64,000 nucleotides of DNA from Sulfobacillus thermotolerans (GTDB lineage: Bacteria > Bacillota > Sulfobacillia > Sulfobacillales > Sulfobacillaceae), in the NCBI GenBank assembly GCA_002951815.1, contig CP019454.1, forward strand, positions 806,001-870,000, read 5' to 3'. The position numbers and the translations under genes are program-made. The notes beneath the pieces are model-generated. The model had not been told where the DNA came from. It searched no databases and saw nothing but the letters and a program-made list of their open reading frames with translations. This document shows positions 5,767 to 8,845 of the stretch, piece after piece (the stretch's first letter is position 1; each line of letters begins with the position of its first letter).

Positions 5767-6495
5767 TTACAAGGTTTGTTGTAAATAGCGAAGAATGCGG
5801 CGTGCCCATATATCGAGCCACGGCGGTGCCTTGGACACATATATCAGGGCCATGGTGCGTACCGGCCATATCACGCCGGGTGTTTCCACAGAGGCCAAAG
5901 TGTTTTGGAGCATATCCGCATAGACTAACGAGCGCGGCATGACGACAACGCCTCGTCCAGCGCGAATGAGGGCTTGAGCTGATTGTAAGGAATCCACGAT
6001 GATTTCATGAAGAGGATGGATGTTGAGCGTTGCCAACACCGTGCGGACGGTATACCCATGGCTAAGCGTTGGAGAAAATCCAATCCATGGCCAACTTTCG
6101 AGCGAAGACTCAAGAGTTTCGATGATATCGGGGCGTGCGATGGGGACCAATGGATCCTGATAAAGGGTCTTTAACGTCACTGTCGTCCCGAAACCATGGG
6201 TGGTGCGAATCAGGCCGGCTTTAAGCTCACCATTTTCCACACGGCGGATAATATCGTTGGAAGTTCCCGTTTGAATTTGCCATAGGAGACGATGCGACTG
6301 GTATGCATCTGGTAGAAGTTGTTCGGCCCAGCCACTAAAAATTCGGGCGATGCCGACCGCTTGGTATGAAGGTTGCGGCATGGTTAACAGCCGGTGGGCC
6401 TGACTCCAATGACTCAGACTAGATTTCAGCCATGGCAATGCCGGAATGAGAACGCTGCGTAGGCTTTGGGGATCGGTCCCCCAAGAGGGGTTCAA
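5767..6495 (-). pseudogene. LysR-family regulator, C-terminal part (gene split by IS607 element)
   Basis: About 240 residues resembling only the ligand-binding half of a LysR regulator (segments such as LIRTTHGFG, LVPIARPDIIE and ALIRAGRGVVVMPRSL). It has no DNA-binding domain of its own. The frame runs back to an in-frame stop at 6496-6498, right at the left end of the IS607 element. The missing helix-turn-helix half is on the far side of the element, same strand, at about 8690-8845. Joining the two flanks restores one continuous frame. A TTG at 6495 could in principle start a truncated protein, but it has no ribosome site and the product would lack DNA binding. Confidence 0.85.
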
Positions 6496-6555
6496 TCAGT
6501 ACCTAAAATATTGCTTTTTCTTCACTAAATCATATTTTTATGGTATAATTTAGAT

Positions 6556-7203
6556 ATGCTATTAAGTTTAGAAGAAGCAGCGAAAGTCTTAGGGGTATCC
6601 AAAAGCACCATGCGCCGTTGGGAAGCGGAAGGGCGTCTGAAACCCGAGCGAACGCCGGGCGGACATCGCCGGTATCGGTCTGAAGAGTTAACGCAAATGG
6701 CCGTGCATCCTCTGCCCAAAACAGATCGTGTGACCATCGCGTATGCTCGTGTGTCGAGTCACGACCAGAAAGCCGACTTGGAAAGGCAGGCCATGGTGTT
6801 ATCCGAGTTCTGCACAAAGAACGGCTGGACTCATGAGGTGATTCGTGATCTGGGATCCGGTCTGAATTACCACAAGAAAGGATTGCGTGAGCTTTTACAG
6901 CGCATTATGCGCAATGATGTGGAACGGCTCGTCGTCACCCATAAAGATCGGCTGTTGCGATTCGGCGCGGAACTGGTCTTTGCTCTCTGTGAAGAGTTCC
7001 ACACCGAAGTGGTGATCGTCAATAAATCAGAAGAGATGTGCTACGAAGAAGAACTGACGCAGGACGTGCTCGAAATCATTACGGTGTTTTCCGCGAGACT
7101 GTATGGTTCCCGGAGCCACAAGAATAAAAAATTGATTGAACGCATGAAAGAGGCGACGCAAGATGATGCGAACCAGGCGGAGGATGACCCGACAACCGAA
7201 TGA
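6556..7203 (+). CDS. tnpA: IS607 TnpA serine recombinase
   Basis: 215 residues. A MerR-like winged helix-turn-helix (about 1-45, LSLEEAAKVLGVSKSTMRRW then GRLKPERTPGGHRRY) precedes a small serine-recombinase catalytic domain. The catalytic Ser67 is in YARVSS, with the conserved THKDRLLRFG segment at about 128-137. This N-terminal-HTH order is diagnostic of IS607 TnpA, which moves the element through a double-stranded circular form. An AT-rich stretch ending TATAATTTAGATATG precedes the ATG, giving a -10-like sequence but no strong Shine-Dalgarno, so the transcript may be nearly leaderless. It overlaps tnpB by 41 bases. Confidence 0.92.
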   Translation: MLLSLEEAAKVLGVSKSTMRRWEAEGRLKPERTPGGHRRYRSEELTQMAVHPLPKTDRVTIAYARVSSHDQKADLERQAMVLSEFCTKNGWTHEVIRDLGSGLNYHKKGLRELLQRIMRNDVERLVVTHKDRLLRFGAELVFALCEEFHTEVVIVNKSEEMCYEEELTQDVLEIITVFSARLYGSRSHKNKKLIERMKEATQDDANQAEDDPTTE

Positions 7204-8566
7204 ACGCAAGGCCGTTTTGCTCCATGACCTCATCGACCGGTACGCCAAGCAGAAAGATGCGTACCTGGTGGCACTCGCCCAAACGAAGAACTGGTGCATT
7301 TGGCAATCGCCGCGCAAGGTCAAGCGCCGATTTGCCCGTCAGTACAGTCATCACACGTTACCGATTCACGTCGAAGATCAATGTTTTTTTGATGCCGTCA
7401 CGACGATGGTGGCATGGGTGGAGAGTGCCAAAGCTCTCAATCACTGGACGAGCCAAGTCTTCGCGCACACGGAGGATGAGAATGCGCGCATCCACTACTT
7501 TAAGGCATTCAAGTCCTATGCTGAACTGGCCCAGGGGCTGTCTGGCGAATGGCACGATCCGTGGTTGTTCCACTTGATGCGCAATTCCTTGATGCACCCA
7601 CCGCGGGTTCACAATCGGCATAGTGCCATGCTGGACGACAGTAGCTATCGCGTGTTCATCGAGAAAGGAAAACAATATATTAGCCTCACGAGTCTTGTCA
7701 AAGGTCAGCGTATCGTGTTACCCCTTCTGGGTAATGCAGGCATCCGTGGGACTATTCGCGTGGTGTACGCGGCCGATCACTGGGAGATTCATACGATGAC
7801 CCAGGTCAAAGTCCAGAAGATGTCCCCTCGCATCAAAAATATTGCGCTAGATGCGGGCACCACGGAAGTCTATACCGATCAGAATAACCGACGCTATGGC
7901 ACTGACTTTGGACGTATCCTCGCTAAGGTAGACGCGCAGGTGACGGATAAAGGCAAGAAGCGCAATCAAATTCGTGATGCCGCGAAGAATCAAGTGTTTG
8001 TCAGTGAAGAAGAACGCCAGGCACACCTCAAGAAAGTGCATCGAAACAATCTGGGCAAGAAGAAACAAAACATGCGGCGTACCACAGCCAGAGCAGCGTT
8101 TGCCACGGAAATTAACCATGCGCTCAACGATGTATTGGAACAGAGACCGCAACGGATCATTGTCGAAGATTTAAGCCACATGCGCGGCAAGGCCCAAGGT
8201 AAGACAATGTCCCGTCAAGTGTCCTTGTGGATGCGTAGCGTCCTGGCCGAACGATTAGATTTTAAAACCACGGCGAGAGGTTCTCGCCGACAAGCGGTTG
8301 CGTCAGCGTATACGAGTCAGGAGTGCTCTCATTGCGGTTTCACGGCCAAAGATAACCGCAAAGGGGATCATTTCAGGTGCGTGTTTTGTGGCACGGTCGA
8401 TACCGCCGATGGCAATGCAGCGAAGGTGATTTTAAAGCGGAGCACCGATCCCGAGATCAAACTGTGGATGACTAAAGAGGCCATTAAAAAGATCTTGGAC
8501 CAGCGCAACGCCCAAATCACGGGGGCAACCCCAGCGCCGGTTGTGAAGGTCGCATCGCTTGTCTAG
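7163..8566 (+). CDS. tnpB: TnpB RNA-guided nuclease (IS607-associated)
   Basis: 467 residues. The RuvC-like triad is complete: Asp230 (IALDAGTTEVYTD), Glu335 (IIVEDLSHM) and Asp416 (DTADGNAAK). The inserted zinc ribbon has Cys388/Cys391 (CSHC) and Cys406/Cys409 (CVFC). TnpB proteins, the ancestors of Cas12, cut DNA guided by an RNA made from the transposon right end and help retain the element at its donor site. The protein is on the long side because of an N-terminal region of about 220 residues before the first RuvC motif. The start at 7163 lies inside tnpA, suggesting translational coupling. No frameshift or stop was seen. Confidence 0.92.
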   Translation: MMRTRRRMTRQPNERKAVLLHDLIDRYAKQKDAYLVALAQTKNWCIWQSPRKVKRRFARQYSHHTLPIHVEDQCFFDAVTTMVAWVESAKALNHWTSQVFAHTEDENARIHYFKAFKSYAELAQGLSGEWHDPWLFHLMRNSLMHPPRVHNRHSAMLDDSSYRVFIEKGKQYISLTSLVKGQRIVLPLLGNAGIRGTIRVVYAADHWEIHTMTQVKVQKMSPRIKNIALDAGTTEVYTDQNNRRYGTDFGRILAKVDAQVTDKGKKRNQIRDAAKNQVFVSEEERQAHLKKVHRNNLGKKKQNMRRTTARAAFATEINHALNDVLEQRPQRIIVEDLSHMRGKAQGKTMSRQVSLWMRSVLAERLDFKTTARGSRRQAVASAYTSQECSHCGFTAKDNRKGDHFRCVFCGTVDTADGNAAKVILKRSTDPEIKLWMTKEAIKKILDQRNAQITGATPAPVVKVASLV

Positions 8567-8689
8567 GATGTGACTCACCGTTAACGGCCTGACTCTAGCA
8601 ACGGCAGACTGTCGTGGAAAGCCGTTCAGAGAGCGAACAATAAGACGAAAACTCCCCGTGAGTAGGTTTAGGGAAGTTTTTTGTAACGG
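8567..8689 (+). ncRNA. Putative omega (guide) RNA scaffold at the IS607 right end
   Basis: About 120 non-coding bases between the tnpB stop and the element end. They contain a 6-bp stem (AACGGC / GCCGTT, 15-base loop, about 8598-8625) and a second hairpin at 8648-8682. In characterised TnpB systems the guide RNA covers the 3' end of tnpB and the right end, and its guide is the flanking DNA just outside. Here that flank starts about 8690 and lies in the disrupted LysR gene. Scaffold limits and expression are inferred from position, not measured. Confidence 0.5.
8648..8682 (+). terminator. Terminator-like hairpin at the IS607 right end
   Basis: Stem AAAACTCCC pairing with GGG-A-AGTTTT (one bulged A) around a loop of about 14 bases, ending in TTTTTT. 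It could end tnpA-tnpB transcripts or be the terminal stem of the guide RNA. If it terminated efficiently, RNA would stop a few bases before the flank, so read-through would be needed to include a guide. Confidence 0.5.
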
Positions 8690-8845
8690 AAGATTCATTC
8701 TCTGACAAAGGCGTGACAAACGGGGGGATAGTGCCGAAGGAGAGAGGTTCAATTGGCGGCTGGCGCCAGCAAGACTATGTCCTTCTGCGAGCAAAACCAA
8801 AAGGTGCAAGTCGAACAAATCCATCTCGGGGAAACTCGCGTCCAT
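8690..8845 (-). pseudogene. LysR-family regulator, N-terminal HTH part (gene split by IS607 element)
   Basis: About 50 residues of a typical LysR winged helix-turn-helix: MDLFDLHLLVLLAEGHSLAG followed by the recognition region LNLSPSALSPRLSRLCQRMN. Homology stops at LP, where the IS607 right end begins; the downstream residues are element sequence. The start is placed at ATG 8845, with GAAGGA 13 bases upstream, while ATG 8824 begins at the more usual MDLF position. The ligand-binding half is at 5767-6495. It lies divergently from the broken methyltransferase gene, the classic position of a LysR regulator relative to its target. Confidence 0.8.

What the first reader, a model, noticed from the sequence alone, without database searches (positions are those of the whole stretch)
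8480..8712. Candidate TnpB guide RNA whose guide matches the disrupted LysR gene
TnpB keeps all three RuvC acids and both zinc Cys pairs. The non-coding right end folds into at least two stems, and the base pairs just outside (from about 8690) come from the LysR coding sequence. If this TnpB behaves like characterised ones, it would cut the restored LysR allele and so keep the insertion. A terminator-like hairpin at 8648-8682 sits just before the would-be guide, which is an unusual arrangement worth explaining.
Basis: partly seen in the sequence, partly recalled or inferred. Interest (0 to 1): 0.6.

Follow-up and report, generated by a model that had tools for sequence, protein, structure and literature searches.

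The report
IS607 TnpB guide RNA targeting LysR
A small jumping gene has landed in a regulator gene and carries a conserved guide RNA whose programmable end is the regulator's own sequence, so its nuclease should cut any copy of the gene that has lost the insert; this is a known selfish trick, found here in a little-studied branch of the family.

Summary
A 2.2-kb IS607-family element (about 6490-8689) carries a serine transposase TnpA and a divergent TnpB, and interrupts a LysR gene. Copies in related genomes fix the right end exactly at ...TAACGG|8689. Joining the flanks at GAGGG|AAGATTC (6489/8690) restores a 301-aa LysR frame; shifts of one base either way do not. The empty site therefore has a GGG target-adjacent motif followed directly by the sequence that forms the guide. 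The right end encodes a conserved right-end RNA (about 8534-8689 plus guide): 61 related loci share it, and covariation supports its last stem and a pseudoknot (8578-8583 with 8684-8689) at the guide boundary. The 'terminator-like' hairpin is that last stem, not a terminator: runs of six or more T occur in only 3 of 61 loci. The element's own right junction reads CGG, not GGG, so it should not be cut. RNA expression and cleavage are inferred. It is a new member of a known kind (IS607 TnpB with its guide RNA), in a clade whose RNA is not in Rfam.

The parts
6490..8689 (+). IS607-family element (2.2 kb); GG crossover dinucleotide at 6488-6489 and again at 8688-8689
   Evidence: ends fixed by copies with different flanks; joining 6489 to 8690 restores the LysR frame
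6485..6489 (+). left flank GAGGG: GGG target-adjacent motif (TAM)
   Evidence: GGG in all recognised left ends; GAGGG and GGG are measured TAMs of other IS607 TnpBs (PMC11061315; PMC10711439)
6521..6549 (+). promoter-like site (TTCACT-17-TATAAT, TG before -10) before tnpA
   Evidence: consensus scan only, number of sites not above shuffles
6556..7203 (+). tnpA, IS607 serine recombinase with MerR-type HTH
   Evidence: NCBIfam NF033518 226 bits, cut-off 110; Pfam Resolvase and MerR
7163..8566 (+). tnpB, RuvC nuclease of the TnpB/Cas12f kind; D230, E335, D416 and four zinc Cys intact
   Evidence: Pfam PF07282; PDB sequence and top fold matches are Cas12f/TnpB/Fanzor; dN/dS 0.13 against the 81% relative
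8534..8689 (+). right-end RNA (reRNA, omega RNA) scaffold, overlapping the 3' end of tnpB
   Evidence: covariance model R1 matches 61 related loci; in 43 of 43 matches in TnpB-fetched loci it lies on the TnpB strand at its 3' end
8578..8583 (+). pseudoknot strand CCGTTA, pairs with 8684-8689
   Evidence: CCGTTA/TAACGG, CCGCTC/GAGCGG and CCGCTA/TAGCGG in different clades; 94.4% of cells paired, covariation 0.295 against 0.125 in shuffles
   Evidence: 11 of 12 pairs show changes on both sides (also 7 of 12 on a plain MAFFT alignment); not a terminator
8684..8689 (+). TAACGG: end of the element, second pseudoknot strand, GG crossover core
8690..8709 (+). guide segment (16-20 nt) copied from the LysR target
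   Evidence: first base outside the element; its 16-mer has no other exact match in the genome
8690..8872 (-). 5' fragment of the interrupted LysR gene (HTH)
   Evidence: Pfam HTH_1
5767..6489 (-). 3' fragment of the interrupted LysR gene (substrate-binding domain)
   Evidence: Pfam LysR_substrate; restored frame

Best explanation
This is an IS607-family insertion sequence whose TnpB is an RNA-guided nuclease. Transcription through tnpB and past the right end gives an RNA that is trimmed to a scaffold of about 155 nt (8534-8689), with a pseudoknot closing on the element's last six bases, followed by a guide of about 16-20 nt read from the LysR gene (8690 on). TnpA excises the element by crossover at GG, which regenerates GAGGG plus the guide match. 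TnpB then cuts that empty LysR allele next to the GGG motif, and repair from a sister copy restores the insertion. The occupied site is spared because its guide match is preceded by CGG rather than GGG. Shown: element boundaries, empty site, motif, conserved RNA with covariation, intact active-site residues, purifying selection. Inferred: transcription, processing, cutting, self-sparing and retention.
For: Right end fixed at 8689 in copies with unrelated flanks; left flank GGG in all 17 recognised left ends; joined flanks restore LysR only at 6489/8690, collinear with intact orthologues. The reRNA model finds 61 loci, among them Actinomycetes; all 43 matches in TnpB-fetched loci lie on the TnpB strand at its 3' end. 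The pseudoknot, which was not in the model, pairs in 94.4% of cells with 46 double-changed cells; no shuffle of 500 reaches its score and slid controls fall to 34-65% paired. The last stem covaries likewise. RuvC and zinc residues intact, dN/dS 0.13, top structural and sequence matches are Cas12f/TnpB/Fanzor. Published IS607 TnpBs use GGG, GAGGG or AGGAG motifs and ISXfa1 needs such a pseudoknot.
Against: No RNA or cleavage data. TnpB scores below NCBIfam's guided_TnpB cut-off (74 against 100 bits) and far below the IS607_TnpB one, so it is divergent from the tested enzymes. This genome holds one intact copy and one decayed relative, so present activity is uncertain. The right end does not fold better than shuffles by energy.
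Confidence: 0.85

Rival explanations
1. The right-end structure is only a TnpA recognition end or an mRNA 3' structure, and TnpB is an inactive passenger.
For: IS607 ends are bound by TnpA, so end sequences are conserved for that reason too; only one intact copy in this genome.
Against: The pseudoknot and stem keep pairing through compensatory changes in bases 100 apart, which DNA-end binding does not explain; TnpB is under purifying selection and keeps its active site.
Confidence: 0.1
2. The hairpin at 8647-8681 is an intrinsic terminator that stops tnpAB transcription before the flank, so no guide is made from this copy.
For: This copy and two relatives have six T in the 3' arm.
Against: The T run is inside the stem and not after it; the scan does not call it; most relatives have an interrupted run there; the same stem is conserved and covaries.
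Confidence: 0.05

Closest known systems
ISXfa1 TnpB/reRNA (IS607 family, PMC10711439)
   Same: serine TnpA, GG crossover, GGG motif, reRNA running past the right end, scaffold that includes the crossover base next to the guide, three stems and a guide-flanking pseudoknot
   Different: sequence-divergent TnpB; the pseudoknot partner here lies between the two 3' halves of the first stem-loop, not in an apical loop of stem-loop 3; not tested biochemically
ISFba1 TnpB with RAGATH-18 reRNA (IS607 family, PMC11061315)
   Same: IS607 TnpB with AGGAG or GAGGG motif; reRNA at the right end
   Different: no RAGATH-18 match by Rfam; here the scaffold overlaps the end of tnpB, whereas those reRNAs lie wholly outside it
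IS200/IS605 TnpB (ISDra2)
   Same: RuvC nuclease, right-end RNA with pseudoknot, guide from the flank
   Different: HUH transposase there, serine recombinase here; AT-rich motif there, GGG here

Membership tests
IS607 family of insertion sequences | TnpA serine recombinase with N-terminal HTH | tested here: met
   NF033518 226 bits against cut-off 110; MerR HTH at residues 7-40, Resolvase at 61-192
IS607 family of insertion sequences | GG crossover and no target duplication beyond it | tested here: met
   ends and empty site; GG at both junctions
TnpB RNA-guided nuclease | RuvC D-E-D and four-Cys zinc ribbon | tested here: met
   D230, E335, D416, C388, C391, C406, C409
TnpB RNA-guided nuclease | NCBIfam curated TnpB cut-offs | tested here: not met
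   guided_TnpB 74 of 100 bits; IS607_TnpB 37.7 of 350. These are name-giving thresholds rather than defining features; profile and fold matches are to TnpB/Cas12f
TnpB reRNA (omega RNA) | conserved structured RNA ending at the element's right end, with guide-flanking pseudoknot | tested here: met
TnpB reRNA (omega RNA) | guide match lies next to the TAM in the empty target site | tested here: met
   GAGGG|AAGATTC... in the joined flanks
TnpB reRNA (omega RNA) | RNA made, bound by TnpB, directs cutting | not testable with these tools
   needs RNA sequencing and cleavage assays
RAGATH-18 reRNA | match to an Rfam model | tested here: not met
   no Rfam match at the right end

The most novel reading that the evidence does not exclude
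A separate, biochemically unstudied clade of TnpBs in acidophilic Firmicutes and Actinomycetes with its own reRNA family, in which deletion derivatives that keep the guide RNA but have lost TnpB are served in trans by one intact copy.
Probability: 0.35. Interest if true: 0.45.

Novelty: new member of a known kind. Interest (0 to 1): 0.33.

Why it matters
It is a clean, fully bounded natural example of the TnpB retention arrangement: element, empty site, motif and guide can all be read off. The covarying pseudoknot shows that the transposase's crossover bases and the RNA's guide boundary are the same six bases, and the CGG/GGG difference offers a simple self/non-self rule to test. The model gives a way to find guide RNAs of this clade, which Rfam does not hold.

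Tried and rejected
Rfam: no reRNA family matches. Folding energy of the right end: no better than shuffles, so not used as evidence. Terminator reading: rejected. Alternative junctions at 6487, 6488 and 6490: LysR out of frame. Off-target search of the 16-nt guide in the genome: only the flank itself matches exactly; the next best has two mismatches. Plasmid collection: only relatives below 60% identity. AlphaFold model: mean pLDDT 72.6, pTM 0.46 and low global TM-scores, so used only for the family-level match, not for details. The first base after the right end is never C in the near relatives (0 of 23) but often C in distant ones; noticed after the fact, so not built on.

Full report
What is there. 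The window lies in a 3.3-Mb genome held as one contig. Named relatives with the closest copies are Sulfobacillus and other acidophile Bacillota. Around the finding sits one insertion sequence. TnpA (6556-7203) is an IS607 serine recombinase well over its curated cut-off. TnpB (7163-8566) overlaps it and matches the Cas12f1-like TNB zinc domain. It is divergent: NCBIfam's TnpB models score below their cut-offs, but profile and top fold matches are to Cas12f, TnpB and Fanzor structures. D230, E335, D416 and the four zinc cysteines are present, and dN/dS against an 81% identical relative is 0.13.

Boundaries. Copies in related genomes with unrelated flanks end at the same base...TAACGG|, window position 8689. 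At the left, each recognised copy begins right after GGG (17 of 17 left ends, judged by eye from the conserved left-end motif). The flanks joined at 6489/8690 (GAGGG|AAGATTC) give an unbroken 301-aa LysR protein; joins at 6487, 6488 or 6490 break the frame. The restored protein aligns end to end with intact LysR orthologues of relatives. This fixes the crossover at the last two G of GGG, in keeping with the GG crossover of IS607 (PMC10711439). A second IS607 family in the same genome, with 18 near-identical copies, shows the same flanks: GGG on the left in 17 of 18 and an ACGG right end in 17 of 18.

The guide RNA. A covariance model built from 19 right ends matches 61 related loci. In loci fetched by their TnpB, all 43 matches lie on the TnpB strand at its 3' end, and they reach Actinomycetes such as Acidithrix. 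A pseudoknot pairs 8578-8583 with the element's last six bases, 8684-8689. It was left out of the model, yet it pairs in 94.4% of cells, with CCGTTA/TAACGG replaced by CCGCTC/GAGCGG and CCGCTA/TAGCGG in other clades. No shuffle of 500 reaches its covariation score, and sliding the strands destroys it. Relatedness inflates such shuffle tests, so the sliding control and the clade-specific pairings carry the weight. The last stem, 8647-8681, also covaries; that stem was in the model, which leans the count towards it, but a first count on a plain MAFFT alignment already showed it. A fold with the pseudoknot strands held open gives three stems, as described for ISXfa1, where breaking the pseudoknot nearly abolishes activity and restoring it rescues in part (PMC10711439).

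The hairpin before the guide. It is the last scaffold stem. The T run is its 3' arm and is interrupted in most relatives; six or more T occur in 3 of 61, and the scan does not call a terminator there on the + strand.

How it likely works. Known IS607 TnpBs cut DNA next to AGGAG, GAGGG or GGG motifs (PMC11061315; PMC10711439). The empty LysR allele has exactly GAGGG followed by the guide match. The occupied right junction has CGG before the guide match; 56 of 61 right ends finish in CGG and none in GGG, which should protect the element from its own nuclease. TnpB processing of its own mRNA into guide RNA is known (PMC10278001), as is the retention and gene-drive role of TnpB (PMC11870625). For this element transcription, processing and cutting remain inferred.

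Verdict. The finding is correct and ordinary in kind: a new member of the IS607 TnpB/reRNA systems, in a divergent clade whose RNA is not in Rfam. The added value is the exact empty site, the covariation evidence, the explanation of the hairpin, and the CGG/GGG rule. No paper linking Sulfobacillus to TnpB or IS607 was among the top listed in the held library, which is a weak statement, since only part of the literature is held.

Noticed in passing
G000:C1, 18 places (loci L010-L027): A second IS607 family with 18 copies 98-99.5% identical, suggesting recent activity; left flank GGG in 17 of 18.
   Followed up: partly
G000:C1:1271452-1271604 (-), locus L222: A decayed relative: reRNA match and a TnpA fragment, no TnpB match.
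   Followed up: partly
L061, L072, L223, L230: Deletion derivatives that keep the guide RNA but lack most or all of TnpB; L061 and L230 share a genome with the intact copy L060. L224 and L225 look similar but sit at contig ends.
   Followed up: partly
window 8690 and equivalent positions in alignment A4: First base after the right end is A, T or G but never C in 23 near relatives, while C is common in distant ones; seen after the fact.
   Followed up: no
L059 (same record as L089, Sulfobacillus benefaciens AMDSBA4): A copy 97-98% identical in DNA, at an unrelated site, in a genome of another genus of the family, suggesting recent horizontal transfer.
   Followed up: no
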